Origin: Pseudomonas sp. GM78
Lineage (GTDB): Bacteria; Pseudomonadota; Gammaproteobacteria; Pseudomonadales; Pseudomonadaceae
Length of the DNA: 64,000 nt
NCBI RefSeq assembly: GCF_000282475.1
Contig: NZ_AKJF01000201.1
Coordinates: forward strand, 43,078-107,077
Reading direction: 5' to 3'
The notes below the pieces were generated by a model. The model was not told the origin of the DNA. It saw nothing but the letters and a program-made list of their open reading frames with translations, and did not search any database. Within the stretch, counting starts at the first letter, position 1. Each line of letters begins with the position of its first letter. Both the position numbers and the translations under genes were made by a program. Below, one piece after another: positions 139 to 17,575 of the stretch.

Positions 139-768
139 ATGAAGAGTGAGATTGTCATTATAGGTGCAGGCGGCCATGCAAAAGTTTGCATTGAGTTGCT
201 CAAGGCTCAAGGTGACTTAGTTGCTTTCTGTATCGGTTCCGCTGACAGCTCAGACACATGCCTGGGGGTTCCTGTCCTTAAATCCGACGAGCACCTCACA
301 ACGCTACGAAGAGAAGGCTACTCGAAAGTTTTCGTAGCCATTGGCTCGAATGCGCTGAGAAATCGTTTAGCCAAAACTGCTACCGACCTCGGTTACGAGC
401 TCGTGAACGCATTCAGTCCGAGTGCTGTAATTTCACCCTCGGCAAAGATTGGCAAAGGTGTAGCGATAATGGCGGGCGCGGTAGTAAACGCGGAAGCCAC
501 AATTGATGACTTGTGCATCATCAATACCGGGGCGACGGTTGATCACGACTGCCAAATCGGTCGCGCTGCTCACATCGCCCCACAATCAGCCCTTGCCGGC
601 AACGTACATATCGGTAAAGAGTCATTTGTGGGCATCGGCACCAAAATCATTCCGAGCATCTGTGTGGGCGAGTGCGTGATGATTGGTGCAGGGAGCGTGG
701 TAATATCGAATGTCGACTCGAAAACCACAGTCGTTGGCGTTCCAGCCAAAGCTATAAATATTATTTGA
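139..768 (+). CDS. NeuD/PglD-family sugar N- or O-acyltransferase
   Basis: This 209-residue protein has the two-part layout of the NeuD/PglD family. An N-terminal Rossmann-like domain carries the motif GAGGHAK (about residues 9-15), and a C-terminal left-handed beta-helix is built of hexapeptide repeats (about 95-200). A His-containing segment DHDCQIG near residue 136 matches the position of the general-base histidine of PglD. The family acetylates amino sugars bound to a nucleotide carrier, using acetyl-CoA. The next gene, 10 bases downstream, is a PLP sugar aminotransferase, the usual partner. I infer that the pair makes an N-acylated 4-amino-4,6-dideoxyhexose. The acyl group cannot be read from the sequence. 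Confidence 0.88.
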   Translation: MKSEIVIIGAGGHAKVCIELLKAQGDLVAFCIGSADSSDTCLGVPVLKSDEHLTTLRREGYSKVFVAIGSNALRNRLAKTATDLGYELVNAFSPSAVISPSAKIGKGVAIMAGAVVNAEATIDDLCIINTGATVDHDCQIGRAAHIAPQSALAGNVHIGKESFVGIGTKIIPSICVGECVMIGAGSVVISNVDSKTTVVGVPAKAINII

Positions 769-778
769 AGGATTAAGT

Positions 779-1879
779 ATGAAACGTATTTCTGTCGCAC
801 AACCGAAACTGGCTGGAAACGAACGAAAGTATGTACTCGATTGCCTTGATACCAACTGGATCTCGTCGAACGGCAAGTACATCGGTGCGTTTGAAGACAG
901 CTTCGCCAAATTCTGCGACGTCAAACATGCGATAGCCACAAATAATGGTACGACTGCACTACATCTCGCACTGGTGGCTCTGAACTTGCAGCCGGGTGAC
1001 GAAGTCATCATTCCGACCGTTACCTATATCGCCACGGCTAACGCTGTACGTTACTGCGGCGCTACCCCTGTTCTGGTCGACGTCTGCGCCGAGACCATGA
1101 ATATCGATCCGCTGGAAATCGAAAGCAAAATTACAACGAAAACAAAGGGTATTATTCCTGTTCATTTGTATGGTCACCCCGCTCAAATGGACCTGGTTAA
1201 CGAAATCGCTCGCAAGCACGGTCTCTGGGTTGTCGAGGATGCCGCAGAAGCACACGGCGCCGAAGTAAAAGGCAAGAAAGTCGGCACCTTGGGCACTTGT
1301 GCCACCTTTAGCTTCTTTGGTAACAAGATCATCACCACTGGTGAGGGTGGAATGGTCACGACTAATGACGATGAACTGGCCGCCAAGCTTCGACTGTTGC
1401 GCGGGCAAGGAATGGACCCGCAACGCCGTTATTGGTTCCCTGTTGTCGGTTACAACTATCGGATGACTAATATTCAAGCTGCTATTGGCTTGGCGCAAAT
1501 GGAAAACATCGATACCGCCCTTTCTGAGCGCAACCACCTCGCAGCGTGGTACAACGACGCACTTCAAGAATTGCAAGACAAGATCTTACTTCCCACTCAA
1601 GCGAGTTGGGCAAAGCAAGTATTCTGGATGTATAACATCTTCTTGCGCGACGGCGACGAGAACAAGCGTGATGCCGTGATGAAGATGCTGGACGACATGG
1701 GCATCGAAACGCGGCCAGTCTTCTATCCAATGCATGTATTACCACCTTACAAAGAAGACGGTATCTACCCTATTGCAGACCTTTGGTCTGGTCGTGGCAT
1801 TAACTTGCCAACGCACCAGGATTTGACTCAGGAAGATATCCTTCGTATCGCGGACACCTTGAAAAAGGTCCTATTGTAA
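779..1879 (+). CDS. DegT/DnrJ/EryC1-family sugar aminotransferase, perosamine-synthase-like
   Basis: This 366-residue PLP-dependent fold-type I aminotransferase has the PLP-binding lysine at Lys183 in FFGNKIITTGEGG. The cofactor-contacting segments NNGTTALHLAL and VEDAAEAHGA are also present. The run RYWFPVVGYNYRMTNIQAA is close to that of GDP-perosamine synthases (Per/RfbE), which transfer an amino group from glutamate to GDP-4-keto-6-deoxymannose. Assignment to GDP-sugar is supported by manC and manB elsewhere in the locus, but no gmd dehydratase is in the window. A good ribosome binding site (AAGGA) lies 7 bases before the ATG. Substrate is inferred; the family is clear. Confidence 0.88.
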   Translation: MKRISVAQPKLAGNERKYVLDCLDTNWISSNGKYIGAFEDSFAKFCDVKHAIATNNGTTALHLALVALNLQPGDEVIIPTVTYIATANAVRYCGATPVLVDVCAETMNIDPLEIESKITTKTKGIIPVHLYGHPAQMDLVNEIARKHGLWVVEDAAEAHGAEVKGKKVGTLGTCATFSFFGNKIITTGEGGMVTTNDDELAAKLRLLRGQGMDPQRRYWFPVVGYNYRMTNIQAAIGLAQMENIDTALSERNHLAAWYNDALQELQDKILLPTQASWAKQVFWMYNIFLRDGDENKRDAVMKMLDDMGIETRPVFYPMHVLPPYKEDGIYPIADLWSGRGINLPTHQDLTQEDILRIADTLKKVLL

Positions 1880-1881
1880 AA

Positions 1882-2916
1882 ATGAAGATCGCGCTGTGTT
1901 CTTCAATGGTGCCATTTGTGCGCGGCGGAAGTCGAAACATCGTGGAATGGCTTGCAACTACCCTACGTGAAGCAGGCCATCATGTTGAAATAGTCTATCT
2001 TCCTGAGGTTGATAATCCTGACACTTTATTTCAACAGATGATGGCATTCCGCTGGGTGGATCTTGAGTCCGCTGACCGGATAATCTGCTTCCGACCGCAA
2101 GCTCACTTGATTCCGCACCCACATAAAATTTTGTGGTTTATTCATCACGTGCGCATTTTTTATGACCTATGGGACTCCGAGTATCGCCCCTACCCCGACG
2201 ACGAAAAGTTCCGCGGCTTTCGCAACGCACTGTATTCCGTTGATGATCAAGCACTGCGTGAAGCAAGAGCCGTATTTACCAACTCGCAAGTCGTGTCGGC
2301 AAGACTTAAGCGTTACAACGGATTGGACAGCGAGGTTTTGTACCCTCCGGTTTTTCTACCTGAACGTTTTCATTGCTCAGGGCAAAGCGATGAAATTGTG
2401 TATATCTGCCGACTGGAACACCATAAACGCCAACACCTGCTGGTAGAGGCCATGGCGCATACCAAGACGCCGGTACGATTGAGGCTTATAGGCTCCAGTG
2501 GCGGAGCTGAATACCCCAACTCGATTGAAGAAAAGATCAAGGCGGCTGACCTTTCTGACCGGATTATGCTGGAAAACCGCTGGATTACCGAGGAAGAAAA
2601 AGTAGAACAGTTTGCAAAATGTCTCGCGGTGGCCTATTTACCGTTAGACGAAGACTCTTACGGCTATCCGAGCCTGGAAGCCAGCCATTCCTCTAAAGCG
2701 ATTTTGACCACGACGGATTCAGGCGGAGTTCTGGAGCTGGTGCAAGATGGTTTCAATGGTCTAATTGCCGATCCAACGCCAGAATCTCTCGCACAGGCAA
2801 TGGACAGGCTTTACCTGAATCGGGCGAACACTGAAGCCATGGGCGTCAATGCCAAACAACGCTTGGCTGACTTGAATATTTCCTGGAAACACGTTCTAGA
2901 GCGACTTCTAGCATGA
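1882..2916 (+). CDS. Glycosyltransferase family 4, first of a tandem pair
   Basis: This 344-residue cytosolic GT-B glycosyltransferase opens with MKIALCSSMVPFVRGG, the typical N-terminal strand and glycine-rich loop. The C-terminal half has the nucleotide-sugar binding region around YPSLEASHSSKAILTT (about residues 256-271), which holds the second glutamate of the GT4 E-x7-E pattern. It starts 3 bases after the aminotransferase stop, without a strong ribosome binding site, so translational coupling is likely. Its stop overlaps the next start (ATGA at 2913-2916). It resembles the next gene along its whole length, suggesting tandem duplication. Donor and acceptor are unknown. Confidence 0.85.
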   Translation: MKIALCSSMVPFVRGGSRNIVEWLATTLREAGHHVEIVYLPEVDNPDTLFQQMMAFRWVDLESADRIICFRPQAHLIPHPHKILWFIHHVRIFYDLWDSEYRPYPDDEKFRGFRNALYSVDDQALREARAVFTNSQVVSARLKRYNGLDSEVLYPPVFLPERFHCSGQSDEIVYICRLEHHKRQHLLVEAMAHTKTPVRLRLIGSSGGAEYPNSIEEKIKAADLSDRIMLENRWITEEEKVEQFAKCLAVAYLPLDEDSYGYPSLEASHSSKAILTTTDSGGVLELVQDGFNGLIADPTPESLAQAMDRLYLNRANTEAMGVNAKQRLADLNISWKHVLERLLA

Positions 2917-3950
2917 AAGTTTTGGTTGTCAACAACATGGCACCTTTCATATGGGGTGGTGCTGAGGAGCTCGCCGTCAATGTGCAAAAGCATCTGACTC
3001 TTGCAGGACACGAGTCCGAAATCTTGCGCATTCCGTTTCAATGGGAACCTTCGAACAAAATACCCTCCCAGATGTTGATGGCACGCGCACTTGAACTGAC
3101 GAATGTAGATCATGTAATCGCACTTAAGTTTCCAGCCTACTTGATTCCACATCCGAGAAAATCGTTGTGGCTTTTGCATCAGTATCGCCAGGCCTACGAT
3201 CTGTATGATGCAGGTCAAACAAATCTACCGCCCGGCCAGAGTGGAGACGATATTCGCTCCGCTATTCTGAATGCAGATAACGAATGCTTCTCCCAGAGCA
3301 GGCATATCTACACCAACTCAGAAGTAACCCGACAACGCCTTTTGAAATATAACGGCTTTGACTCAACGGTATTGCTGCCACCTGTCAATGATCCAGAATC
3401 ATTTATCAATGGCACCCACGGCGACTATATTTTCGCTGGAGGTAGAGTCAATGGCATGAAGCGCCAGTTCCTGCTCCTTCAGGCTTTGGCAAAGACCGAT
3501 AAGCGCGTCAAGTTGATTATTGCCGGACCGCCGGAGTCACCAGCGGATGCTGAGCAACTGATTGAGATGGCCCAGACACTGGGCGTAACGGACAGAGTTC
3601 GCTTGGATCTGCGCTTTTTGCCACGCTCGACCTATGTCGACTATGTAAACGGCGCGATGGCTGTGGCCTATATACCATTCGATGAAGATTCGCTGGGTTA
3701 TGTGGCCATGGAGGCCGCTACTGCCTCCAAGGCGCTGATCACTACTACTGACAGCGGCGGCATATTGGGATTGGTCAAGGACCGTGTTACCGGCTGGGTG
3801 GCGGAACCCACGGCTGAAGGCCTGGCTGCTGCCATGAGCGCTGTGGTCGTCAGTAAATCTACAACCGTCGAATATGGGGCTGCTGCACACGCACTGTGGA
3901 ATAGTCTGGGCGTCAATTGGAATGAAACCATCGAGGCGCTTCTGAAATGA
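2913..3950 (+). CDS. Glycosyltransferase family 4, second of a tandem pair
   Basis: This 345-residue protein is a paralogue of the preceding gene: matching opening (APFIWGGAEE), the AYLIPHPRKSLW segment against AHLIPHPHKILW, the YTNSEVTRQRL region, and FDEDSLGYVAMEAA with TTTDSGG in the donor domain. It is a GT-B family 4 enzyme, probably adding a sugar to the lipid-linked O-unit on the cytoplasmic face of the inner membrane. ATGA overlaps join it to both neighbours (2913-2916 and 3947-3950). Linkage specificity is not readable. Confidence 0.85.
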   Translation: MKVLVVNNMAPFIWGGAEELAVNVQKHLTLAGHESEILRIPFQWEPSNKIPSQMLMARALELTNVDHVIALKFPAYLIPHPRKSLWLLHQYRQAYDLYDAGQTNLPPGQSGDDIRSAILNADNECFSQSRHIYTNSEVTRQRLLKYNGFDSTVLLPPVNDPESFINGTHGDYIFAGGRVNGMKRQFLLLQALAKTDKRVKLIIAGPPESPADAEQLIEMAQTLGVTDRVRLDLRFLPRSTYVDYVNGAMAVAYIPFDEDSLGYVAMEAATASKALITTTDSGGILGLVKDRVTGWVAEPTAEGLAAAMSAVVVSKSTTVEYGAAAHALWNSLGVNWNETIEALLK

Positions 3951-5254
3951 AGTTTCTAATTTTCACTCCAGCCATTCAAACCTCAGCCATTGGCCGGATG
4001 ACAAGTTTGGTGACGCATGCTCTTGTGTCCCAAAAACATGAAGTCGTCGTAGTTCGCACTGAAATAATCGGGCTTCTTAATACCCAAACGCATGACTTCG
4101 GCTGCGATGTTACTTCCTGGATAGACACATCCGAGGTCCAGGCCAGCATAGAAAACGCCGATGTATGCATTCATCAGGTTGGAAACAGCTACGAATTCCA
4201 TCAAGGCAACATTGAGTGGCTAGCGCGCTCTAGTGGCATTATTTGTCTGCATGATTTTTTCCTTGGGCACCTGTTTTGGGGCTGGGCCCAAAATCATACT
4301 GAACAGGCACGAAAAGTATTAAGTACTTACTATTCGAATGAGGCTGCCGAGCGCTTTTTCAACATTAGTGGTAATGAAGCATTCATCGAACTCACCAAAG
4401 ATCAGTCCCCCATGACTGAGTGGATTTGCTCGATGGCATCCGGAGTGGTGACTCATAGCAATTGGGGCTGTGACAGAGTTTTGAGTTCCTGCCCAGGCCC
4501 TGTGCGGGTAGTGCCACTGGCTTATGACTGCCCCGGCCTTTCACTGGCTGGAACAAAGCAAAAACGTGTGCCAGCGACCAAGCTCAAGCTGCTAACCATC
4601 GGTCATGTTAACCCCAACAAGAGAGTCGAATCCTGCATCAAGGCCATCGCCGCTAACCCAACGCTTAGAGAAGCAGTGTCTTATCGATTGGTGGGGGCTA
4701 TTCAGCCTGATGTAAAAGTTAAAATCCTTGATCTCGCGCAAAGCCATGGCGTAGACATCGAGATTTCGGGAGAGGTTGACGGAACCACCTTGGCACTAGC
4801 CATAATTGATGCAGACATTATTAGCTGCTTGCGCTGGCCTAGCTTGGAAGCGGCGTCAGCCTCCGCAATCGAAGCAATGCTTTACGGAAAAACCACGATT
4901 GTCACCAATACAGGTTTTTACAGCGAGCTTCCCGAGCAATACGTTCTAAAAATAAACCATGATAAAGAAATCGAAGAGCTTGAAGCAACACTACTGTCTC
5001 TCCATGCAAACCCTGACCTTTTAGATGTAAAAGGCCAGCAAGCACAGGAATGGGCAAAATCGACCTTCACGGCTGAAAACTACGCCCGCCAGTTAGTCGA
5101 CATGAGCACCGCCTGCATTAGAACCAGTTCTACCCTGAAGGCGGCATCGTATTATGCTGGCATACTTCAGGGCTGGGGTGCCGACACCAACCTGTTGCAA
5201 AACAATGAGTCACTTGCTCCACTGGCTATTTTTAACGAGATCCATCCGCACTAA
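3947..5254 (+). CDS. Glycosyltransferase (GT-B fold)
   Basis: This 435-residue protein starts MKFLIFTPAIQTSAIGRM and has the C-terminal donor-domain signature LLTIGHVNPNKRVESCIKA (about residues 216-234), followed by ISCLRWPSLEAASASAIEA and TTIVTNTGFYSEL. It is somewhat longer than its two neighbours, with an extra C-terminal helix-rich segment. It is joined to the upstream glycosyltransferase by an ATGA overlap and is the last plus-strand gene of this operon; a 13-bp hairpin follows. Likely role: assembly of the surface polysaccharide repeat. Specificity unknown. Confidence 0.82.
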   Translation: MKFLIFTPAIQTSAIGRMTSLVTHALVSQKHEVVVVRTEIIGLLNTQTHDFGCDVTSWIDTSEVQASIENADVCIHQVGNSYEFHQGNIEWLARSSGIICLHDFFLGHLFWGWAQNHTEQARKVLSTYYSNEAAERFFNISGNEAFIELTKDQSPMTEWICSMASGVVTHSNWGCDRVLSSCPGPVRVVPLAYDCPGLSLAGTKQKRVPATKLKLLTIGHVNPNKRVESCIKAIAANPTLREAVSYRLVGAIQPDVKVKILDLAQSHGVDIEISGEVDGTTLALAIIDADIISCLRWPSLEAASASAIEAMLYGKTTIVTNTGFYSELPEQYVLKINHDKEIEELEATLLSLHANPDLLDVKGQQAQEWAKSTFTAENYARQLVDMSTACIRTSSTLKAASYYAGILQGWGADTNLLQNNESLAPLAIFNEIHPH

Positions 5255-5307: not shown

Positions 5308-5425
5308 ACAAGCAGTGTTAGCCTTTGAGTAATCTACTGTCCATTCTTTCCAGTTGATCGGCTTGTATCGACTTTAATGGCGGCCACGTTCAACTCCAAT
5401 TCACTGAGTGCGCAAGCCTCCACCG

Positions 5426-5821
5426 TCATCGTGTGGGGGCAAATGCCCAGATTTTCATGACCAAGTAATTCAATACCGGCACCACAAGGATCACCATTAC
5501 CAAGCCAACACCGTAATGCCAACCAAGGTATTCAACTATGGAAGTGATCAAGAGCGTGAGTGCCAAAGAAACCAGGGATACCACAAGGAACCGTCGGTAG
5601 CCCAGGAAGCTTACGGGGGTCTTGAATGTAAACCGGCTGTTGAGCGCGTATGACATCAGATTGGCAAATACAAATGCCACCCCGTTAGCTACAAAGGCTG
5701 GTGGCGCGAAGATTTCCATCAATGCAATGACGATACTGGCATGCACTGCTGTGTTCGCTACGCCAACCAAGCCGAAGATTATGAATTCATGGTATTTCGC
5801 AGGAATGATCACGTTGTTCAC
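5426..5821 (-). CDS. GtrA-family membrane protein (putative lipid-linked sugar flippase)
   Basis: This 131-residue protein has four predicted membrane segments and the GtrA signature FIIFGLVGVANTAVH near the N-terminus, plus YALNSRFTFKT after the second helix. GtrA proteins are believed to move undecaprenyl-phosphate-linked glucose (or another hexose) across the inner membrane for O-antigen modification. Its start overlaps the stop of the GtrB-like gene (ATGA at 5818-5821). The order DUF6311-like, GtrB-like, GtrA is a closed three-gene operon, read towards the preceding plus-strand operon. Confidence 0.88.
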   Translation of the reverse strand: MNNVIIPAKYHEFIIFGLVGVANTAVHASIVIALMEIFAPPAFVANGVAFVFANLMSYALNSRFTFKTPVSFLGYRRFLVVSLVSLALTLLITSIVEYLGWHYGVGLVMVILVVPVLNYLVMKIWAFAPTR

Positions 5822-6762
5822 TTGATCACGTCACGTACGATATATACCGGCCGATTTTTGGACTCAGCAAAGATCCTGCCCACATATTCACCGAGAACAC
5901 CGATCCCGATCAGTTGTGCACCGCTGGCGAACAGCACAGTAATCATGATTGAGGCGTAGCCAGGAGTGTCAGCGCCAAAGAACAATGTCTTGATTAATAG
6001 ATAGGCTGCGTAAACAAATGACAAAGCTGAGATCGCGCCACCCAGATAGGTCCACACTCGAAGAGGTACAGAACTGAAGCTGGTAATACCTTCGAGCGCG
6101 AAGTTCCACAACTTCCAGGTGTTGAAGCTTGTGGTGCCGTGCTCACGAGGGGCCACCTTGTACTCCACCGTGGTGGTTCGGAAACCTACCCAGGCGAACA
6201 GGCCTTTCATGAAGCGGCGAGTCTCCGGCAGAGTCTTCAACGCTTCGACCACTTTGCGATCCATCAGGCGAAAATCACCGACATCGGCCGGGATATCGAT
6301 GTCGGAAATACGGTTGTGAAACTTGTAGAAGCAGTTGGCAGTCAGCTTTTGAAGGGCTCGGTCGGTTTCACGGTCGACTCGCTTCGCCAGTACCACCTCA
6401 GCGCCCTCCTCCCATTTTTCAATGAGTTCAATGACCACTTCGGGTGGATGCTGAAGATCGGAGTCAATCGGAATCACCGCGTCGCCAGTTGCGAAGTCCA
6501 GCCCCGCAGAAATGGCAGCCTCCTTACCAAAATTACGCGACAGGTCGACAATAGTCAGGTAGTGGTTTTTCACCTTGGCCTTGATCAGCTCCTCGTAGGT
6601 CTGATCACGGCTTCCATCGTTAATCGCGATGACTTCAAGATCGTACCGATCTGCCAGCGGACCAAACACTTCATTGATTCTATTGAAGAATGCCTGCACG
6701 CCCTTTTCTTCGTTGTAGAAAGGGGACACTAGGGAAATTTTGCGTTTTTCTGAGGTTATCAT
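5818..6762 (-). CDS. GtrB-like glycosyltransferase family 2 (polyprenyl-phosphate sugar synthase)
   Basis: This 314-residue protein has an N-terminal GT2 domain with SLVSPFYNEEKGVQAFF, AINDGSRDQT and the DSDLQHPPE catalytic DxD region (about residues 99-107). Two C-terminal membrane helices follow (about 230-295). That layout is characteristic of GtrB and dolichol-phosphate-mannose-type enzymes, which load a sugar from a nucleotide donor onto undecaprenyl phosphate at the cytoplasmic face. It overlaps both neighbours by ATGA. The sugar (glucose in the best-known Gtr systems) cannot be told from the sequence. Confidence 0.9.
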   Translation of the reverse strand: MITSEKRKISLVSPFYNEEKGVQAFFNRINEVFGPLADRYDLEVIAINDGSRDQTYEELIKAKVKNHYLTIVDLSRNFGKEAAISAGLDFATGDAVIPIDSDLQHPPEVVIELIEKWEEGAEVVLAKRVDRETDRALQKLTANCFYKFHNRISDIDIPADVGDFRLMDRKVVEALKTLPETRRFMKGLFAWVGFRTTTVEYKVAPREHGTTSFNTWKLWNFALEGITSFSSVPLRVWTYLGGAISALSFVYAAYLLIKTLFFGADTPGYASIMITVLFASGAQLIGIGVLGEYVGRIFAESKNRPVYIVRDVIK

Positions 6763-8399
6763 TGAAATTCACGCACCCGGTGATTAAGACGGCAGATATT
6801 GGCAAAGTCGACTTCTATACAGGTAGGCAGATACTTGTCAGGGAACAAGGCCTTCACCTGCTCCACTTGCGGATAGTCGCCTTTGACAAACACATATAAG
6901 GAGTGGTCCGGTGCTGATGCAGCAATTTCAGCCTTTGTGCTCTCGACGCTACAATTGGAATTCGCCCGCGCTACGTAGCCAGTATTGATCTTGATGCCAT
7001 GCACAGCGGCATAGCGCATCGTGGGCATCAAGGTATTGAGAATCAGCTCCGAACGCCCGCAGCGGAACTTCGGAAAGAAATACAGTTCCTTAATTTCGCT
7101 GGTGACTTGTTGATCCCATGCAGACTGCGTCAACACAAGAGAAGGCGGACGCTTGGCGGTATCGACAAGCCGATGGCGTAGGTTAGACAGGTCAGACACT
7201 TGCAGCAGCACCAATAGAACCATGCACCCTGAAAATAAAACCGGACCAAGCTTTTTGTACAGAGTCGCGATTGCAAAAATAACGATGCAGTATCCTACCG
7301 GCCAGAAGAAACGCCCAGACGCTCGGAACTGGGAAGTGATTTGATCCATGAAGGACGGATAGTTAATGGTTACTACTTGGTGGACGCCGTAATAAACGAT
7401 ATTGGACAACGCATAGGCAGTAAACAGAAACATTAGCCATGTCAATGCTCGGTGCTGCGAAAAACTCCCCACAGCGGCCTTGCGGTTGAGTACAACGCTC
7501 AATGCAAATGCCAGGAGTACGCCGAGGCCGATGTAATTGAATCCTTCATACTGGCCCGGCATTTCCGGATCGGGAAAATTCAGGTAATTTCCGCCATGAA
7601 AGGGCGATAGCAGATTCATCGAATAAATGCCAAACCCCCCCTCCTTGCCTACCGCAACTCGCTCCATCGGCAGTATGGTCAGGAATAAGCTCGCGCCGAT
7701 TATCAGGAACGGAATTAACGCCCGACCCAGTTCAGCTGGCTGAAATTTCGCACGGTTGCACAGGCAACTGACAATATAGATGGCACTTGCCATTACACAT
7801 AAGTAAATATTGATATAAAACGCCACCACCAGCAGCAGTGACCAGGCAAAACGCTGTGGTTCGTTGGTCCTTCTGCACCGGATGTACAGTGCCAAAGAGG
7901 ATAGTATGATCCAGTGCGACATCAGCGAAATATGGCCCAACCGCGTCGTCAGCGCCGGGAACGTCAACAAGCACACGGTCAAGGCTAGCAACGCAAGCCA
8001 TGACTTTATCTGCAGTTCCCGGAGTATCCACCACGCGCATATTGCCTGACCGACAAATGCCAGGGCTACCCAGAATCCAAACGGGTTGAATGGAGCAAAA
8101 CTGGCAGGTACGAAGAGCTTCAGTAATAGCGCGTACAGGGGTATCGCGTCTACAAATGTTACCCGGGTGCCTTGTGGATAATTAATGCTATCGAAGCTCA
8201 GCAGTGGATAACTGAACGGCGCGCTAAAAAAAGCATTGAAACCTGCAAAATACTGAGTGACGTCATCAACTTCGGTCAACCAATAAGAAGAGGTCCCTAA
8301 GACGAAACCGGTGGGAAAGTATCGCCATACAAAAAACAACCCAATCGCCAAAGCCACTGCAAAGCCGGCCCTGCCCGTTGAGTCAAGCTTGAAATCCAT
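6759..8399 (-). CDS. Polytopic membrane protein, DUF6311-like, candidate GtrC-type glycosyltransferase
   Basis: This 546-residue protein has about ten hydrophobic segments and a soluble C-terminal region. Early loops carry LTEVDDVTQYFAGFNAFF and SINYPQGTRVTFVDAIPLY, which I recognise as typical of the DUF6311 family. Acidic residues in the first periplasmic loop (EVDD) suit a GT-C fold. Its position directly before gtrB/gtrA-like genes, with ATGA overlap, is where the serotype-specific transferase GtrC lies in Gtr modules. I infer that it transfers the lipid-linked sugar to the O-polysaccharide in the periplasm. I chose the ATG at 8399; a TTG two codons upstream is possible. Confidence 0.72.
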   Translation of the reverse strand: MDFKLDSTGRAGFAVALAIGLFFVWRYFPTGFVLGTSSYWLTEVDDVTQYFAGFNAFFSAPFSYPLLSFDSINYPQGTRVTFVDAIPLYALLLKLFVPASFAPFNPFGFWVALAFVGQAICAWWILRELQIKSWLALLALTVCLLTFPALTTRLGHISLMSHWIILSSLALYIRCRRTNEPQRFAWSLLLVVAFYINIYLCVMASAIYIVSCLCNRAKFQPAELGRALIPFLIIGASLFLTILPMERVAVGKEGGFGIYSMNLLSPFHGGNYLNFPDPEMPGQYEGFNYIGLGVLLAFALSVVLNRKAAVGSFSQHRALTWLMFLFTAYALSNIVYYGVHQVVTINYPSFMDQITSQFRASGRFFWPVGYCIVIFAIATLYKKLGPVLFSGCMVLLVLLQVSDLSNLRHRLVDTAKRPPSLVLTQSAWDQQVTSEIKELYFFPKFRCGRSELILNTLMPTMRYAAVHGIKINTGYVARANSNCSVESTKAEIAASAPDHSLYVFVKGDYPQVEQVKALFPDKYLPTCIEVDFANICRLNHRVREFQ

Positions 8400-8437
8400 A
8401 ATCAAAACGTCCTGAAATTCATACTAGGTAATGGCTG

Positions 8438-8453
8438 GCGCGTTAAAACGCGC
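8438..8453. other. Perfect 7-bp hairpin at the end of the two-domain glycosyltransferase gene
   Basis: The arms GCGCGTT and AACGCGC are separated by two bases and overlap the stop codon at 8443. No U-run follows on the minus strand. It may slow the ribosome or protect the mRNA 3' region, or be chance in coding sequence. Confidence 0.35.
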
Positions 8454-10977
8454 ACTTATCAATCTCGCCAATGAGCTGCTGCGCACTGCCTTTCCAGGTC
8501 AGCCAAGGCATTTCTCCAGACTGCGGATGCTGCTTGAGTTCATACAACTTCAGCCATTCGGCCAAGCGGTCAGCAATATCCTGCGCAGTTGCCCCTTTGA
8601 AGTACCATGCGAATTCACCCGCCACTTCATGGAATACGGGCAGATCCCTCGCGATAATCGGCAGCTTGTATTGTGCCGCTTCGATTAATGGCAAGCCAAA
8701 GCCTTCGCCATACGAGGCGGCCACCAAGCAGTCGCAGTGGGTATAGAGATGCTCCAGGTATTCGTCGCTTACCCCTTCAAGCCAGAGCAGCCGCCGCCCC
8801 AATTCTGGATGATTAATAAGCCTGGTCGCAAGCTCATCCACCAGCCAGCCGTGCTTGCCTACAATGATCAGGTTTGCCTGGATACCAGCTGCCCAAAGCA
8901 GCTCAAAGGCATCAAGGGCCTGCGCGTGCCCTTTACGGGGCTCCAGTGTACCCACCATCAGAAAGTTCGGTGATGCCTCCAGCGACTCGATCCGCAGCGC
9001 AGGGTTCTCCGGAAAACCGGTGGAAGGCATTGATTGATCAATATCGGCGCCCAGATGGAACGCACCGATACGAAATGGACGCTTGCGTGGTGGCACATTT
9101 TTGTCCAGCCACTTACCTAGTTCGTCAGCGACTGCATGGGATATACATATCGCGCCGTCGTACTGGGCCACGGCATGAATCCATTTCATATAGTGCGCTT
9201 GCAGACTTTCAACAAAACAATGAGGAAGTTGCAGAATCAGGAGATCGTAGACCACGAAAAAAATGCTGACCCCATGGGCGCGCATCGTATCGAGGTAGGT
9301 TTGTTTGTACGGAATCACGTCCATGAGTAGATCCAGACACAGGTACACGTCCCCTGCCCGGTAGCTGATGGGCTCGTCCTGGCCTGCTTCGCTAGCGTCC
9401 TTACCCAGAAACATTGTGGCGAAATGCGACGCGTAGCGGTAAAAAGTCTCCCCCGATTTGGTGTACACCGGCTTGATTTCATAACCTTCGGGAGGATTGT
9501 TCAACCACTCCGCCAAAATGCTGCGCACGACTCGCTGAATGCCACTCTTGCCATCATGCTTGCACAACTCTGAGATATCGACGAACAGAGTTGGCTTGCC
9601 GGCCAGACCTTGCAGCGAATAATCGATAATCTTGGCTAGTCGCTGAATATCCACAGCGCCTGTGTGCAGGTGCCCGGTAGCAGCCAGTGCGTCGATCAGC
9701 ACTTGCGTACCGTCTCCTGATGACCGAGAGGTATCACTGCACTTCTCTGGCCGTTCGAAATTTGCAAAAGCTTGCTCGAACGCCGCTACAGCTGCCATGC
9801 CGGTACGGTCCCAGGAGAACTGCTCTGCACGCTGCAGACCATGTGTTACCAGTGCAGCACTGAAAGTATCGTCTGTCAGCGCCTGACGAAGTTTTCCACA
9901 AATGGCCTGGATATCAAACGGGTCGAAGGTCGCTTCTTCCCAACCAATCACTTCTGGCACGCTGGACTTATTTGCACCAATCACTGGAGCGCCACACTTC
10001 ATGGCCTCGAGCGGTGGCAGGCCAAAACCTTCATGCCATGAGGGGAACACATACAAACTGCACACATTGTACAGGGCGACCAACTCCGAGTCGGTAATGT
10101 AGCCCGTAAACACCAGGTCGGTTTGGCTCAGGCCTTGGTCGTGGGCAAGCTTCTGGAAGTTGTAGATGTGGAGCTCGGGCATTTTTCCCGCAAACACCAA
10201 CTGAATATCTTCCAGTTCCGCCTTTACAACGGCGAAGGCCTTGATTAGTTGCGGCAGGTTCTTGCGGTCATCGGCGCCACCGGAATACAGCACGAACTTT
10301 TGTCGCAGGCCGAATTTTTTATCGAGCGCGTCACGTTCATCCGAGCTGAGGGCAACCGGCCGGAAGACATCGTCCGCTGCGGTGGAGACGTTGACCACGT
10401 TCGCGCTGTCCAGCGGCAGCAACGACAAGGCTTCTTCTCGGGCGAAATCGGAAATGGAAAGCAGCAAACCGTAATCCTTGAAAGCGTCTACTTTTTCCAG
10501 GTAATGCTTTTTATAGCCGGGGTTGCCGTCCAGATACTGCTTCGGGGTGACCAGCGGGATGAGGTCATAGATTGTGGCACTGACAAGTGCATGAGTGTCC
10601 AGTAGAGGACTGCCGATGACCGCATCGTCCACGTAGCCTTCTATCGCGCTGGTGACATGTACAACGTCAGGCTTCAGGTCATCGATACAAGCTTGTCGAA
10701 TCCGTTGCGCCATTTGCTTTCTGGCACTGTTAGCTGGATCGTGTTCACACACTGGCCCTTGGCTGTACCACACGCGGATGTGGCTTTGCGGCAGGAGCCC
10801 AATGAAAGCTGTGCGGATTCGGTCAACGCTCTCGCTGAGCATACCGTTGAGCACCAGGTAAACTTCATTTTCGCCACGATTACGCACGATAGCTTGCGCC
10901 AGGGACAAGCTGTAGCGACCAATACCACGGAACTGGTTTTCAGTCTGTGCGCCCTGCATGTCAATTACGATACGCAT
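8443..10977 (-). CDS. Two-domain glycosyltransferase (tandem GT4 modules)
   Basis: At 844 residues this protein contains two complete GT-B family 4 modules. The first (about 1-385) begins MRIVIDMQGAQ with FRGIGRYS and has the E-x7-E element EGFGLPPLEA near residue 313. The second (about 440-840) begins FVDISELCKHDGKSGIQR and has EGFGLPLIEA near residue 757. Such tandem proteins (WbdA/WbpY-like) build homopolymers of mannose or D-rhamnose from GDP-sugars in ABC-transporter-dependent O-polysaccharide pathways. The adjoining methyltransferase, the wzt remnant and the GDP-mannose genes on the same strand fit that pathway. Its start overlaps the methyltransferase stop by one base (TAATG at 10975-10979). 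Confidence 0.88.
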   Translation of the reverse strand: MRIVIDMQGAQTENQFRGIGRYSLSLAQAIVRNRGENEVYLVLNGMLSESVDRIRTAFIGLLPQSHIRVWYSQGPVCEHDPANSARKQMAQRIRQACIDDLKPDVVHVTSAIEGYVDDAVIGSPLLDTHALVSATIYDLIPLVTPKQYLDGNPGYKKHYLEKVDAFKDYGLLLSISDFAREEALSLLPLDSANVVNVSTAADDVFRPVALSSDERDALDKKFGLRQKFVLYSGGADDRKNLPQLIKAFAVVKAELEDIQLVFAGKMPELHIYNFQKLAHDQGLSQTDLVFTGYITDSELVALYNVCSLYVFPSWHEGFGLPPLEAMKCGAPVIGANKSSVPEVIGWEEATFDPFDIQAICGKLRQALTDDTFSAALVTHGLQRAEQFSWDRTGMAAVAAFEQAFANFERPEKCSDTSRSSGDGTQVLIDALAATGHLHTGAVDIQRLAKIIDYSLQGLAGKPTLFVDISELCKHDGKSGIQRVVRSILAEWLNNPPEGYEIKPVYTKSGETFYRYASHFATMFLGKDASEAGQDEPISYRAGDVYLCLDLLMDVIPYKQTYLDTMRAHGVSIFFVVYDLLILQLPHCFVESLQAHYMKWIHAVAQYDGAICISHAVADELGKWLDKNVPPRKRPFRIGAFHLGADIDQSMPSTGFPENPALRIESLEASPNFLMVGTLEPRKGHAQALDAFELLWAAGIQANLIIVGKHGWLVDELATRLINHPELGRRLLWLEGVSDEYLEHLYTHCDCLVAASYGEGFGLPLIEAAQYKLPIIARDLPVFHEVAGEFAWYFKGATAQDIADRLAEWLKLYELKQHPQSGEMPWLTWKGSAQQLIGEIDKCAF

Positions 10978-12326
10978 TATTTCTGGTCCTTAATCATGGC
11001 TTCCCTGAGGGCACTCTCGATAGTACGACCCCGTTGAGTCAGTGGCGCGTGATCAATCTCACCGTCCTGAAGACTATGGGCAGTCGCTGCCGCAGCGGCG
11101 TTAAGAGTGCGCTGATGCAAACTTCGCAGCTTGGCCACAAGCCATGGACTGCGATTCAAGATCGCCATGAGCCGGCGCTGGATTACAGGGCGGCGAGCCA
11201 GATAGAGCCGAGCATGTGGAACTCCGCGGAGCAACACTTGGCTCAGCGGTGACCTGCTGGAACGAAATGGCCAGCGAATGGCGCGGACCATTAGGCGGAA
11301 TGGCGCGGTGATGCGCCAGGATGTGCTGTTGCGCACGGTTTCCAGCTGCTGCTCGTACGTAGTGGCGCGCAGTTCCCAGCTGTTTGCATTGCCAAGTGCT
11401 TTATTGAGTTCAGCCTGCAATGCATCCGTCTTGGCCAGTGCTGCATCCAAGCTGTTTTTGTAACGCTCCTGCATATGCATTAGCTGTTCGACTTGAAGAC
11501 GCTGGATGCTGTCCAATGCTTTCAGGTAATCCGCACGGCCTGTCGACATCTCATCCTCTATTTTTGAAAGTTGGCTTTCCAAAACGCAGTCGTCGCGAAC
11601 TGCCAGTTGATCGAGCGGTGCGCCTTGGGCCGCGTCAAATACAGGATTGAACACGCAGAGCAACTCGGGTGCTGCTTGCTTTTGCGCCACGACGGCACAG
11701 TCAGGGCGGGTAGTCGACAGCACTTGCCACATGCCATCCCTGCTGCTTTCATCCCGTAGCGCGGGTGCTTCCTGAAGAAGCACGATCCTGGATTTGGCAA
11801 AACCACTGTGCTCAGTCAAAAACGACAGCAGCAGGCTCGGCAACGGGCGCTGGTGGGCGGGGTCCATGTAGAAACGCTCGTCACCTACCACCACGCCTTC
11901 GACATTGGGGCTCTCAAGGATCAAAACCCCGGCAGGACGCAAAACCCTCAGCGCTTCAGCGATCAGTTTTTGCAAGACCGGGAATGAAACCTGCTCAGCG
12001 ATTTGGAAGCCGGTTACGGCAACAAGACTGTTATCAGGCAGCTTCTGCATAGCGCTGAGCGCGTCATCCTTGCGCACAGGCAGCTCCAGCATGCGACATG
12101 CTTCAAGCATACCGTCGTCGAGGTCTACCCCTGAAGGCGCAAAGCCTTCGCGGCCAAGCAGCTCAAGCCACTCGCCGCGTCCACACCGCAGGTCCAGGAT
12201 GGGGTAGTCTGGATACAGCTCTTTCAATGGCGCAAGAAATGGAAGGTACGCTTCAAGTCGCTGGCTGATCAGTTCTCTGGAACCGCGATTCTGCCCTTGA
12301 AAAGCTCTGGAAAAACCATAACCCAT
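10977..12326 (-). CDS. WbdD-like SAM methyltransferase with coiled-coil tail, altered catalytic motifs
   Basis: This 449-residue protein has an N-terminal class I methyltransferase fold (about 30-200), a coiled coil (about 250-330) and a C-terminal SWRITAPFR element. It has the layout of proteins that cap and measure O-polysaccharide chains, although the kinase domain of E. coli WbdD is absent. Two motifs look worn. The SAM loop reads DLRCGRGE where DLGCGRGE is usual, and the position normally reading HxxEH reads QIAEQ. The MDPAHQRPLP segment is retained. I chose the ATG at 12326 because its TGATG overlap with the decayed wzt stop is typical coupling; a GTG at 12335 is possible. Activity is doubtful. 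Confidence 0.75.
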   Translation of the reverse strand: MGYGFSRAFQGQNRGSRELISQRLEAYLPFLAPLKELYPDYPILDLRCGRGEWLELLGREGFAPSGVDLDDGMLEACRMLELPVRKDDALSAMQKLPDNSLVAVTGFQIAEQVSFPVLQKLIAEALRVLRPAGVLILESPNVEGVVVGDERFYMDPAHQRPLPSLLLSFLTEHSGFAKSRIVLLQEAPALRDESSRDGMWQVLSTTRPDCAVVAQKQAAPELLCVFNPVFDAAQGAPLDQLAVRDDCVLESQLSKIEDEMSTGRADYLKALDSIQRLQVEQLMHMQERYKNSLDAALAKTDALQAELNKALGNANSWELRATTYEQQLETVRNSTSWRITAPFRLMVRAIRWPFRSSRSPLSQVLLRGVPHARLYLARRPVIQRRLMAILNRSPWLVAKLRSLHQRTLNAAAAATAHSLQDGEIDHAPLTQRGRTIESALREAMIKDQK

Positions 12327-12900
12327 CAATTGCACTCCACGGCAGGAGGCATCCTGAAAAATCCGACAAACGTGCTTTGCGAACTATTGACTACGTTAAA
12401 CACTTGGATTGAACCCACCCACTCGTAATTACGTGATAAATGATTGTCCGCTGCATGTATTGCGACGACCACAGAATACGATCCCACACCCGGCTTCCTG
12501 ATCCACTTCGAGGTCATCAGCTTTGGAGCCCAAGTGCTGCGTGTTGTTGCCAAGCACTGGCTGCCCAAACCTGTCCTTGATCGGATAACCAACGACCAAC
12601 TCCGGGCTGGCACTGTGTAACCCTTGGCCGATGAGCAAGGATACGTTTTCTCCAGCTGATAGGTACTCGATACTAACATCACCGCTGCCGGATCGGGTCT
12701 GTATGGAGCCGGTGTGCAGCTCGCACCTGTACCATTGCGTTCAATTCTTTGGCAACGAAGGCGCCGTAGAAGTCCATGACTTCTCTTGTGCTGAAAGTAG
12801 CCGTCAGTGATCGACAGCGATTCGCCCACGATTAGATCCCCAAGACGAATTGTGCCGCGGCCACAGCGAAAGCAGCATGCACTGCATGCCATCGGAGCAG
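12326..12900 (-). pseudogene. wzt: Remnant of wzt, ABC-type O-polysaccharide exporter ATPase (C-terminal part)
   Basis: No intact frame spans this stretch, but three frames read in order give the C-terminal half of Wzt. Frame one (about 12725-12800) gives FSTREVMDFYGAFVAKELN, the usual end of the ATPase domain. Frame two (about 12480-12720) gives GSGDVSIEYL, PELVVGYPIKDRFGQPVL and NNTQHLG, the glycan-binding domain. Frame three (12326-12490) gives SYSVVVAIHAADNHLS and NYEWVGSIQVFNVVN up to the natural stop. At least two frameshifts separate them. The Walker A and B parts and the partner permease wzm are missing; manB begins 170 bases beyond. The natural stop still overlaps the methyltransferase start, so this was once the operon's exporter gene. 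Confidence 0.85.
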
Positions 12901-12930
12901 GTGTAGACAGGCTCGTCGAAATAATCGACT

Positions 12931-12970
12931 GCCTCGCCCTAACGCCCGATGCACCACATCGGGCGAGGCG
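12931..12970. repeat. Nested inverted repeats between manB and the wzt remnant
   Basis: Arms CGCCCGATG (12943-12951) and CATCGGGCG (12957-12965) form a 9-bp stem with a 5-base loop. GCCTCGCCC (12931-12939) can alternatively pair with GGGCGAGGC (12962-12970). The structure sits about 100 bases beyond the manB stop, where the missing front of wzt should be. It could be a manB terminator without a U-run, or debris from the deletion. Confidence 0.5.
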
Positions 12971-13066
12971 AATCACTGGAGTGTTCGCCTGATGGCCAAG
13001 TTTTCGCGGGTCACCGCCTGACAGGTGCGTCAGGTCGCGCGTCGACCACCGAAGAGCGCAGAGGCA

Positions 13067-14431
13067 TCAACCTTCTTTAATTAGCAACTCGATTTCTTTC
13101 AAGCGAGCCCACATCAGCTCCTGATTCCCCTTAGCCTCGACGTTGAGTCGTAACAATGGCTCGGTATTGGAACCCCGCAAATTGAAACGCCAATCCGCAA
13201 ACGAGATGCTGATGCCGTCTGTCCTATCGAGTTCAGGATTCTCAGGCAGGTAATGAGCCAAGACTTTCTGCAAGGTAGCAGCCACATCCTCAACCCGGTA
13301 GTTGATCTCGCCTGTGCATGGGTACGACTCGATACGCTCATCTACCAACTGCGCAAGAGTCTTACCCGTTGTCGACATCAATGCCGCAACCAACAACCAT
13401 GGAATCATCCCACTGTCGCAGTACGCAAAATCGCGGAAGTAGTGGTGAGCGCTCATCTCCCCGCCATACACCGCGTCTTCCTCGCGCATGCGTTCTTTGA
13501 TGAATGCATGTCCGGTTTTGCTCTGAACGGCGATACCGCCTGCCTGTTCGACCTGTTCGATGGTGTTCCAGGTCAGGCGCGGGTCGTGGATGATCTTGCT
13601 GCCTGGGTGTTGCTTAAGCAACATCTCAGCCAGCAGACCAACGAGGTAATAGCCCTCGATGAACCGACCATCGGCATCGAAGAAGAAGCAGCGATCGAAG
13701 TCACCGTCCCAGGCCAGGCCCATGTCGCACTGGTTGGACAGTAGCGCCTGACGAGTCAGTTCGCGGTTCTCGGGCAGCAATGGATTGGGTACGCCGTTCG
13801 GAAAGTGGCCATCGGGCACTTCATTGATGAACACAAATTGCAGCGGCAGTCGTGCAGCCAATGCCTGCATCACAGGGCCAGCAGCGCCATTGCCCGGGTC
13901 TGCGAGGATCTTGAGGGGCTTCAAGGCGCTGATGTCGACGTAGGTGAGCAAATGGTCGATGTAGGCGGTCTTGTCGAACGCTTGGCGTACCGCGCCTTTT
14001 TCTGTCGCAACGGTGCCAAGCTCACCTTGATCGACACGCTGACGGATAGCGTCGAGACCGGTATCGCCGCTGATTGGACGGGACTCGGCCTTGACCAACT
14101 TCATGCCGTTATAACCCTTGGGGTTATGGCTGGCGGTAATCATTACGCCGCCGTCGACCTTGTAGTGACTGGTGGCGAAGTAGACTTCCTCGGTGCCGCA
14201 CAGCCCGATGTCGATCACATCGGCACCTGCCTCGGTAATCCCGCGCAGCAGCGCTGCCGCCAAGGGTGGGCTTTCGAGCCTCATGTCCTGGCCCACCACG
14301 AAGGTTTTCCCCTGCAACTCAGCCACGAGCGCGCGACCTATGCGGTAGGCGATGTCTTCGTTAAGTTGAGCGGGAACCTGACCACGGATGTCATAGGCTT
14401 TGAAGCATTGCGTCACGATAGGAGAATACAT
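13067..14431 (-). CDS. manB: Phosphomannomutase/phosphoglucomutase (ManB/AlgC family)
   Basis: This 454-residue alpha-D-phosphohexomutase converts mannose-6-phosphate to mannose-1-phosphate for GDP-mannose synthesis. The phosphoserine loop is TASHNPKGYNG (near residue 100), the metal-binding loop is DGDFDRCFFFD (near 240), the sugar-specificity loop is GGEMSAHHYF (near 320), and the C-terminal phosphate-binding region is RGSNTEP. I start at the ATG at 14431, preceded by GTGAG; a GTG three codons upstream would give 457 residues. It follows manC on the same strand after a short spacer with a hairpin. The housekeeping algC is expected elsewhere; this is the O-antigen copy. Confidence 0.9.
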   Translation of the reverse strand: MYSPIVTQCFKAYDIRGQVPAQLNEDIAYRIGRALVAELQGKTFVVGQDMRLESPPLAAALLRGITEAGADVIDIGLCGTEEVYFATSHYKVDGGVMITASHNPKGYNGMKLVKAESRPISGDTGLDAIRQRVDQGELGTVATEKGAVRQAFDKTAYIDHLLTYVDISALKPLKILADPGNGAAGPVMQALAARLPLQFVFINEVPDGHFPNGVPNPLLPENRELTRQALLSNQCDMGLAWDGDFDRCFFFDADGRFIEGYYLVGLLAEMLLKQHPGSKIIHDPRLTWNTIEQVEQAGGIAVQSKTGHAFIKERMREEDAVYGGEMSAHHYFRDFAYCDSGMIPWLLVAALMSTTGKTLAQLVDERIESYPCTGEINYRVEDVAATLQKVLAHYLPENPELDRTDGISISFADWRFNLRGSNTEPLLRLNVEAKGNQELMWARLKEIELLIKEG

Positions 14432-14452
14432 ACTACTCACTAACTGAAAGTC

Positions 14453-14475
14453 CGCTGCCGCCCTGAGGCGGCAAC
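14453..14475. other. GC-rich hairpin in the manC-manB spacer
   Basis: The spacer between manC and manB contains GCCGCC-CTGA-GGCGGC, a tight 6-bp stem flanked by further complementary bases. It has no U-run. It may stabilise the upstream manC message or modulate manB translation; this is inferred from position only. Confidence 0.35.
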
Positions 14476-14556
14476 GGCAAGAATGAACCGCCAGGGCCTG
14501 ATGCCGCTGGCGTGCTGACCTCGTAAGGCGCGAGGCTCGCTTCGGGTTCAGTATTG

Positions 14557-15999
14557 TTACTTGTCGACGCGACCGTAGTTGTCTTCAAAACGAACGATGT
14601 CGTCTTCGCCGAGGTAGTCGCCGCTCTGCACTTCGATCAGCACCAGATCAATCACACCCGGGTTTTTCAGGCGGTGTTTATGACCTGCGCGAATGAAGGT
14701 CGATTCATTGGTATGCAGCATCAACTCTTTCTGGTCGTTGACGACGACAGCAGTACCGCTGACCACGATCCAGTGCTCACTGCGGTGGTGATGCATTTGC
14801 AGCGACAGGGATGCACCAGGCTTCACCACAATACGCTTGATCTTGAAGCGCTCACCGTTTTCCAGTGTCGTATAGGTACCCCAAGGACGGTGCACAGTGC
14901 GGTGGAGCAAATGCACGGTGTGGCTGGATGCCTTGAGCTGGTTGACGATATGTTTTACGTCTTGGGCGTGATCCTTGTGGGCAATCATCACCGCGTCGGG
15001 TGTATCGATCACCAGCAGGTCTTGCACGCCCACCAGCGCAGTCAGGCGACCCTCACTGTTCACATAGTTGTTACGCGAACCGTGGGACAGCACTTCACCT
15101 TCGAATCGGTTGCCGTTCTCGTCAGACTCGGTCAATTCACTGACCGCGTTCCAGGAGCCGATATCGCTCCAACCGATATCGCAGGGCACGGTAGCCACTT
15201 TGGACGAACGCTCCATCAATGCATAATCAATGGAAATGTCCGGCACTTCCGCGAATGCATCTGCATCAAGCGCCAGGCAACGGTACTTGTTAGATGAGGT
15301 CAGACGCGAAAGTTCGATTGTCCTGGCAACTGCCTCAACCACATCCGGAGCATGCTGGCGCAACTCTTCCAGCACCGTGCCCACCCGGAAACAGAACATC
15401 CCGGAATTCCAGAAGTAGTTACCTGCGCTGACATAGCCTTGCGCAGTGTTGAGATCTGGTTTTTCAACGAAGCGCGCGACCTTCAAACCACCCTTCAGTG
15501 GTGCATCTTTTTGCGCTTCGACGTAACCAAACCCGGTTTCAGGATAAGTCGGTTGAATACCGAACGTTACCAGCCATCCTTCAGCGGCAAGCTTCGTAGC
15601 GCTGACCACCGCTTCGGCAAAGGCTTTTTCGTCCTGGATCAGATGGTCGGCAGCCAGCACCAGCATCTGCGCATCCGGGCCATGCGTGGCTTCCAGCTGG
15701 AGCGCGGCAGCGGCGACGGCAGCAGCTGTGTTACGGCCGAAAGGCTCAAGAATGAAACCCTGAGCAAGCTTGGCTTTATTGACCGAACCGTACTCGTCTT
15801 CAGTCTTGAACAGGAGCTCACGGTTGGTCACCGTAAGAATCTCCACAACACCTTCCAGGCCTGAAGCGCGCAGGAAGGTTTTCTGGATCAGATTCTGACC
15901 ATCCGGCAGCTCCATGAACGGCTTTGGATGAGCTTCTCGAGAAACAGGCCACAACCGGCTACCTACTCCACCAGACAAAATTACGGGAATCAGTTCCAT
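14557..15999 (-). CDS. manC: Mannose-1-phosphate guanylyltransferase / mannose-6-phosphate isomerase
   Basis: This 480-residue bifunctional enzyme makes GDP-mannose from mannose-1-phosphate and GTP, and also interconverts fructose-6-phosphate and mannose-6-phosphate. The N-terminal nucleotidyltransferase domain has LSGGVGSRLWPVSRE (residues 8-22) and the FVEKPD motif near residue 173. The C-terminal cupin (about 350-475) has VVKPGASLSLQMHHHRSEHW with the metal-binding histidines, and WGTYTTLENG. It is the first gene of the minus-strand operon manC-manB-(wzt remnant)-methyltransferase-glycosyltransferase. Family members in Pseudomonas include AlgA, WbpW and PslB; I use manC for the O-antigen copy. 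Confidence 0.93.
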   Translation of the reverse strand: MELIPVILSGGVGSRLWPVSREAHPKPFMELPDGQNLIQKTFLRASGLEGVVEILTVTNRELLFKTEDEYGSVNKAKLAQGFILEPFGRNTAAAVAAAALQLEATHGPDAQMLVLAADHLIQDEKAFAEAVVSATKLAAEGWLVTFGIQPTYPETGFGYVEAQKDAPLKGGLKVARFVEKPDLNTAQGYVSAGNYFWNSGMFCFRVGTVLEELRQHAPDVVEAVARTIELSRLTSSNKYRCLALDADAFAEVPDISIDYALMERSSKVATVPCDIGWSDIGSWNAVSELTESDENGNRFEGEVLSHGSRNNYVNSEGRLTALVGVQDLLVIDTPDAVMIAHKDHAQDVKHIVNQLKASSHTVHLLHRTVHRPWGTYTTLENGERFKIKRIVVKPGASLSLQMHHHRSEHWIVVSGTAVVVNDQKELMLHTNESTFIRAGHKHRLKNPGVIDLVLIEVQSGDYLGEDDIVRFEDNYGRVDK

Positions 16000-16835: not shown

Positions 16836-16880
16836 TAACGGATATGACAAGCACTGACGCGCATCACGCCCGTGCCGCAA

Positions 16881-17120: not shown

Positions 17121-17147
17121 CAGGGCCTCCTTGAAGTGCAGCTGCCA

Positions 17148-17444: not shown

Positions 17445-17575
17445 AATTTTCCCTTCTTTTTCAAGCAGCTAGATCAGCGCTTCAAAGGTTTTAGCATGCC
17501 CTGACAAATTTGAACAGCCCCATCCCGAACCCTGTTTTTTTCTCGCTCAGACACCGCAACCCCCAACCCGCCCAC

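What the first reader, a model, noticed from the sequence alone, without database searches (positions are those of the whole stretch)
12326..12900. Decayed wzt next to intact polymerising glycosyltransferase and capping methyltransferase
Three reading frames on the minus strand spell the end of a Wzt ATPase domain and its glycan-binding domain in the correct order, with at least two frameshifts. The adjacent genes (two-domain GT4, WbdD-like methyltransferase, manB, manC) belong to the ABC-transporter type of O-polysaccharide synthesis, but wzm and the front of wzt are gone. Either the exporter is supplied from elsewhere, or the pathway is dead and the locus is changing serotype by adopting the plus-strand cluster.
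Basis: partly seen in the sequence, partly recalled or inferred. Interest (0 to 1): 0.72.

Follow-up and report, generated by a model that had tools for sequence, protein, structure and literature searches.

The report
Broken sugar exporter in hybrid locus
A surface-sugar exporter gene in this Pseudomonas has decayed beside scraps of mobile DNA, in a locus that fuses two different surface-sugar gene clusters; the other cluster still has an intact exporter, so the cell may have switched exporter rather than simply lost one.

Summary
Minus-strand 12329-12929 is a wzt pseudogene: ordered pieces in several frames, residues 1 to about 135 (with Walker A) and about 184-229 missing, wzm gone, and fragments of IS630- and IS3-type transposase genes in the gap.

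The interpretation changes. Relatives carry two separate loci: manC-manB-wzm-wzt-MT-GT-gtr, and a cluster in which wzm-wzt and further genes converge on GT464-GT410-manB-manC. The window fuses them, with a GT464 stub at the seam. The second cluster keeps an intact wzm/wzt without a glycan-binding domain, 1.4-3.0 kb left of the window, the only Wzm-like permease found in the genome.

The methyltransferase frame is open but its catalytic domain departs from 10 of 69 near-invariant columns (highest of 82 sequences; mean of others 1.09), including G50R in the SAM motif. The glycosyltransferase (3 of 169), manB (1 of 187) and manC (1 of 183) look conserved.

Best reading: a chimeric O-antigen locus that lost its cap-and-recognise module, export passing to the domain-less transporter. 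The fusion and the lesions are shown; the exporter switch is inferred.

The parts
12329..12929 (-). wzt pseudogene: about residues 136-183 and 230-404 of a 404-residue Wzt, in several frames; Walker A half missing
12332..12490 (-). best-kept piece, Wzt residues 351-403 (glycan-binding domain)
   Evidence: E 8.8e-26, 70% to L052
12507..12722 (-). Wzt residues 251-335 with an internal 13-residue gap (glycan-binding domain)
   Evidence: E 7.0e-28
12721..12783 (-). Wzt residues 230-250, end of the ATPase domain
   Evidence: E 1.7e-8
12934..12965 (-). fragment of the 3' tail of an IS3-type transposase gene, abutting wzt
   Evidence: (94% over 32 bp); core pattern once in window, 0 expected
12965..13036 (+). 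fragment of an IS630-type transposase gene in the place of wzm
   Evidence: 82%, E 5.5e-13; frame in L009-L011
10977..12335 (-). WbdD-like protein (methyltransferase, no kinase domain found), 452 aa; frame open, catalytic domain eroded, C-terminal domain near normal
8443..10977 (-). two-domain GT4 glycosyltransferase, 844 aa, conserved
6759..8405 (-). DUF6311 protein, gtrC-like by position
   Evidence: colinear in L039 and G065
5818..6762 (-). GT2 glycosyltransferase, gtrB-like
5426..5821 (-). GtrA-type membrane protein
5319..5402 (-). stub of the 3' end of the GT464 glycosyltransferase gene: the seam between the two clusters (start approximate)
   Evidence: peptide at 5344-5370, E 2e-5 to G150
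13067..14440 (-). manB, phosphomannomutase, conserved
14557..15999 (-). manC, mannose-1-phosphate guanylyltransferase, conserved
139..5254 (+). plus-strand cluster (PglD-like, DegT, three GT4); its wzm (about C201:40065-40886) and its wzt without glycan-binding domain (C201:40902-41642) lie left of the window

Best explanation
This is a wzt pseudogene inside a chimeric O-antigen locus of a Pseudomonas. Shown: two ABC-transporter-type clusters that lie in different genomes among the relatives examined are joined here. The minus-strand cluster has lost wzm and the ATP-binding half of wzt at a place that now holds transposase scraps; what is left of its Wzt, glycan-binding domain included, is broken; the catalytic domain of its methyltransferase has lost residues that are near-invariant elsewhere; its polymerising glycosyltransferase, manB and manC are conserved. 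The plus-strand cluster keeps an intact wzm/wzt whose Wzt has no glycan-binding domain, and lacks two glycosyltransferases (GT464, GT410) that its four closest counterparts carry in this slot. Inferred: the methyltransferase's cap and the Wzt domain that reads it became useless together once export passed to the transporter that needs no cap, and the minus-strand glycosyltransferase was kept because it now builds glycan in the hybrid pathway in place of the lost two. GDP-mannose from manC/manB feeds gmd and, perhaps, that glycosyltransferase.
For: Ordered Wzt pieces and transposase scraps. The only Wzt_C matches in the genome are the remnant; of the three ABC2-type permeases found, one is Wzm-like, the others best match PRK15066 and PedC. 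Both cluster types open in relatives: L039 and G065 against G150, G053, G034, G347. GT464 stub at the seam. Methyltransferase 10/69 near-invariant columns lost, rank 1 of 82; GT 3/169, rank 12 of 28; on the same 26 taxa 11/68 against 3/172, Fisher p 8e-5. Tip-branch ratio methyltransferase/GT 2.60, highest of 26 in free trees. C-terminal domain of the methyltransferase 2/30. GC climbs from about 0.49 in the plus-strand cluster to 0.54-0.57 over 10-16 kb, as for parts of different origin. In print: a CBM-less Klebsiella transporter can export the O3a antigen in an engineered recombinant, and accumulating unexported chains may carry a fitness cost (PMC11231755, passages).
Against: Export of the GT844 product by the other transporter is untested. 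Transporters deprived of the domain fail to export their capped substrates (PMC9445017, passages), though that concerns transporters that normally carry it. With the GT topology imposed, L037 has a higher branch ratio than the window, 3.71 against 2.67, and in the ten-sequence close set L037 shows 10/92 catalytic departures with an intact wzt (window 18/100), so these methyltransferases also vary without exporter loss. The contrast between catalytic and C-terminal domain was not tested for significance. dS is high or saturated in most pairs, so selection on GT could not be measured that way. GT could have been renewed by recombination after the methyltransferase decayed. The promoter scan found fewer sites than shuffles, so nothing supports separate expression of GT.
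Confidence: 0.6

Rival explanations
1. Dead pathway in ordinary decay: the minus-strand cluster is non-functional, the plus-strand cluster makes the O-antigen alone, and the glycosyltransferase merely has not yet been hit.
For: Exporter gone, methyltransferase eroded; complete second exporter.
Against: At the methyltransferase's rate about 28 departures would be expected in the glycosyltransferase's 172 columns; 3 are seen (p 8e-5). The plus-strand cluster lacks the GT464 and GT410 of its four counterparts, so it is not obviously complete alone.
Confidence: 0.25
2. The minus-strand glycosyltransferase, with the gtr-like genes, serves another glycan (a side-chain or core modification) that needs no Wzm/Wzt.
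For: gtrA-, gtrB- and gtrC-like genes follow it and are open; such modules add sugars after export (recalled).
Against: In the close set (L036, L037, L039-L046, G065) the glycosyltransferase directly follows wzm, wzt and the methyltransferase, and two GT4 domains fit a polymerase. More distant loci such as L096 and L108 have a homologue placed elsewhere.
Confidence: 0.12
3. Assembly artefact: a misjoin or sequencing errors make the frameshifts and the chimera.
For: Draft genome of 235 contigs.
Against: Lesions of different kinds, large deletions, transposase scraps, erosion in the neighbour, and a seam with a real stub of the displaced gene.
Confidence: 0.03

Closest known systems
E. coli O9a/O8 and Klebsiella O3/O5 capped O-antigen export (WbdD, WbdA, Wzm, Wzt with carbohydrate-binding module)
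   Same: Gene set and logic of the minus-strand cluster in relatives: manC/manB, wzm, wzt with Wzt_C, methyltransferase, two-domain GT4
   Different: Here wzm and half of wzt are gone and the methyltransferase is eroded; no kinase domain found; no WbdD structure among the matches
Klebsiella O1/O2 galactan exporter (Wzt without CBM)
   Same: The plus-strand wzm and wzt match NF050109 and NF050108 best of the NCBIfam models, and no Wzt_C is found there
   Different: Both score below the curated equivalog cut-offs (292.6 of 380; 301.7 of 400), so they are not certified members
Hybrid O-antigen loci of Burkholderia cenocepacia IST439 and Xanthomonas oryzae pv. oryzicola BLS256; plastic OBC3 cluster of P. 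protegens
   Same: Chimeric or rearranged O-antigen loci with signs of horizontal transfer (PMC5462993, PMC2238763, PMC10715155; passages)
   Different: The passages that I saw describe no pair of exporters, one dead and one alive, with loss of cap and cap-reader together

Membership tests
Wzt with carbohydrate-binding domain | C-terminal Wzt_C domain | tested here: met
   As broken pieces only, each below the Pfam cut-off (26.7 and 25.9 of 30.4), order kept
Wzt with carbohydrate-binding domain | Intact ATPase domain with Walker A in one open frame | tested here: not met
   Residues 1 to about 135 and about 184-229 absent; several frames
Capped ABC-dependent O-antigen locus | wzm beside wzt | tested here: not met
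   No wzm match in window 1-20000; wzm within 8 kb of the methyltransferase in 71 of 82 other loci
WbdD-type terminator | Methyltransferase plus coiled coil next to wzt | tested here: inconclusive
   Methyltransferase domain by Pfam; no WbdD among PDB matches, best 3dli; coiled coil judged by eye only
WbdD-type terminator | Family-conserved catalytic-domain residues | tested here: not met
   10 of 69 near-invariant columns changed, including G50R
CBM-less (galactan-type) O-antigen exporter | Wzm/Wzt pair, Wzt without Wzt_C | tested here: met
   C201:40065-41642
CBM-less (galactan-type) O-antigen exporter | Exports uncapped chains | not testable with these tools
   Needs LPS analysis

The most novel reading that the evidence does not exclude
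A natural exporter switch: a cap-dependent O-antigen system lost its capping activity and its cap-reading domain together after fusion with a cluster whose transporter needs no cap, while its polymerase and the C-terminal (by analogy polymerase-docking) end of the former capping protein stayed under selection. The half-dead capping protein would survive as a scaffold.
Probability: 0.3. Interest if true: 0.62.

Novelty: new variant of a known kind. Interest (0 to 1): 0.42.

Why it matters
Capped and uncapped O-antigen export are treated as two separate systems. An engineered Klebsiella recombinant shows that a domain-less transporter can carry another O-antigen (PMC11231755, passages), but whether evolution makes that switch is, as far as I saw, open. 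A locus caught with cap and cap-reader decaying and polymerase kept would let the question be tested by gene removal. It also shows two O-antigen clusters fused at one site.

Tried and rejected
Pairwise dN/dS was of little use: dS was high or saturated in most pairs. A search of the genome for another Wzt_C or another Wzm-like permease as an 'exporter from elsewhere' found only the plus-strand pair; in a draft of 235 contigs a broken or missing gene could escape. Mutual exclusion of the two cluster types: GT844 in 21 and the CBM-less wzt in 22 of 398 genus genomes at the E-values asked, only the window's genome in both, but about 1.2 overlaps are expected by chance, so no claim is made. Direction of the fusion: the GT464 stub marks the seam without saying which side moved; manC/manB are nearer to L050, a manC-manB-wzm locus (94 and 86%), than to G150 (92 and 81%); left open. 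A nearer relative with the same lesion: none seen among 398 genus genomes drawn from a larger group; the genus members listed by the 'relatives' search bore handles already in that sample. Of 13 genomes whose CBM-less wzt is 71% or more alike, only 4 (G150, G053, G034, G347) carry the same cluster, FkbM not being matched in G034; the other 9 showed only wzt/wzm matches of over 100 residues in the 20 kb fetched. Promoter and terminator scan: uninformative.

Rows: the 82-row methyltransferase alignment holds the window plus 81 of 83 loci (two dropped by the coverage or frame-length filter) and counts P. baltica twice (L038 = L054); the GT alignment kept 28 rows of full length and at least 40% identity, manB 19 and manC 32 rows of at least 55%; 26 taxa are shared by the first two. 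L038 was skipped in the neighbour count, which examined 82 loci. In one search the wzt query was mis-extracted; one search repaired that.

Papers: passages only of PMC5462993, PMC2238763, PMC11231755, PMC6286764, PMC9445017, PMC10715155, PMC3482155; everything else only as search listings. I saw no report of a natural switch to a CBM-less exporter in those six listings; that is a narrow search.

Full report
Where it is. The window is C201:43078-107077 of a 7.29 Mb draft genome. Neighbours that read as rpsA, cmk and tyrA-aroA by Pfam and a frame that I recognise as ihfB mark a site beside which relatives also carry O-antigen clusters.

The remnant. Pfam Wzt_C is hit by two separate pieces, each below the curated cut-off. 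A DNA search of 398 genomes of the genus shows a mosaic: 12965-13036 match an IS630-type transposase gene on the plus strand (82%, 5.5e-13), 12934-12965 the 3' tail of an IS3-type transposase gene (94% over 32 bp, 4.4e-6), and the rest matches wzt (IS family names are mine). The palindromic core of the IS3 tail occurs once in the window, 0 expected; the genome's own relatives of that transposase are distant, 31-38% identity. The Wzt pieces, searched apart, give residues 136-151, 230-250, 251-335 and 351-403 of 404. No wzm match is found in window 1-20000. Relatives keep manC-manB-wzm-wzt-MT-GT in that order (L039-L046, and L054 with a more distant GT); of 82 methyltransferase loci examined, 71 have wzm and 70 a Wzt with its C-terminal part nearby.

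Two clusters, one seam. Type B: manC, manB, wzm, wzt, MT, GT844, gtrC, gtrB, seen in L039 (P. capeferrum) and G065; in L039 the DNA is colinear with window 5435-11392 at 73%, gtrA included. The window has type A up to 5402, then type B from about 5426. Between the last plus-strand GT and gtrA the tail of GT464 survives as a stub: DNA homology to G150 runs to 5402 and the peptide at 5344-5370 matches GT464 (E 2e-5). GC is about 0.48-0.51 over 1-8 kb and 0.54-0.57 over 10-16 kb. G264, of the same species, carries a different cluster at this site with a wzm-like gene and a 472-residue frame that I read as wzt.

Exporters left. Three ABC2-type permeases were found. One belongs to the type A cluster (Wzm NF050109 E 2.9e-87, Wzt NF050108 E 3e-90, both below the curated cut-off); the other two best match PRK15066 and PedC. 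The only Wzt_C matches are the remnant itself. A Wzx-like and a Wzy/WaaL-like gene lie together on contig C128, and a second Wzy/WaaL-like gene on C40; their roles were not followed.

What is still under constraint. Columns conserved in 95% or more of the other sequences and lost in the window: methyltransferase catalytic domain 10 of 69 (rank 1 of 82; mean of others 1.09; next highest 5), GT844 3 of 169 (rank 12 of 28; mean 4.44), manB 1 of 187 (rank 5 of 19), manC 1 of 183 (rank 15 of 32). On the same 26 taxa the contrast is 11/68 against 3/172, Fisher p 8e-5; at fully invariant columns 7/54 against 2/131, p 0.003. The losses include the first glycine of DLGCGRGEW and both histidines of FHIAEH. 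In a set of ten close sequences the window has 18/100 in the catalytic and 2/30 in the C-terminal domain; L037 has 10/92 and 4/32 and L036 2/84 and 6/34, both with open wzt, so part of this is ordinary divergence. The window's tip branch is 2.6 times longer in the methyltransferase than in GT844, the highest ratio of 26 in free trees; under the GT topology L037 is higher (3.71 against 2.67). Type A genes of the window have dN/dS of 0.03-0.15 against G150 where it could be measured.

Reading. The pattern of loss fits the known logic of capped export: the terminator adds a cap, the CBM of Wzt reads it, and in WbdD a C-terminal region recruits the polymerase (PMC11231755, PMC6286764, PMC3482155; passages). 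If export passes to a transporter that needs no cap, cap and cap-reader fall free together and the polymerase does not. That a CBM-less transporter can carry another O-antigen was reported for an engineered Klebsiella recombinant (PMC11231755). Against it, transporters deprived of their own CBD fail to export capped chains (PMC9445017). The chimera and the broken exporter are shown; the switch is inference, and ordinary decay remains possible at about one in four.

Which cluster came second is open. The GT464 stub shows where the seam is, not which side moved; manC/manB resemble those of a wzm-type locus (L050) slightly more than type A.

Noticed in passing
window 5269-5308: An inverted-repeat-like sequence between the converging gene ends at the seam is shared with G150; the terminator scan lists nothing there.
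   Followed up: partly
L033-L034 (G264): A genome of the same species has a different O-antigen cluster at the same site, with a wzm-like gene and a 472-residue wzt-like frame.
   Followed up: partly
L179, L192 (G065): The methyltransferase match of G065 is flagged with one TAA though wzm, wzt and GT are present; could be a second eroded case or just the end of the gene.
   Followed up: no
L168 (G034): GT464 is matched only from residue 143 in G034, as if the gene were broken or mis-sequenced.
   Followed up: no
G000:C128:40653-42896: A Wzx-like and a Wzy/WaaL-like gene lie together, perhaps another polysaccharide cluster.
   Followed up: no
L026:2047-5505: Genes that read as rmlBDAC sit at the far side of the cluster here, but between manC and ihfB in G150: a further rearrangement.
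   Followed up: no
L060, L079, L084, L086, L102, L109, L115, L118: Loci with the methyltransferase but no Wzt or Wzm match nearby; some are cut by contig ends, others may be natural exporter-less cases.
   Followed up: no
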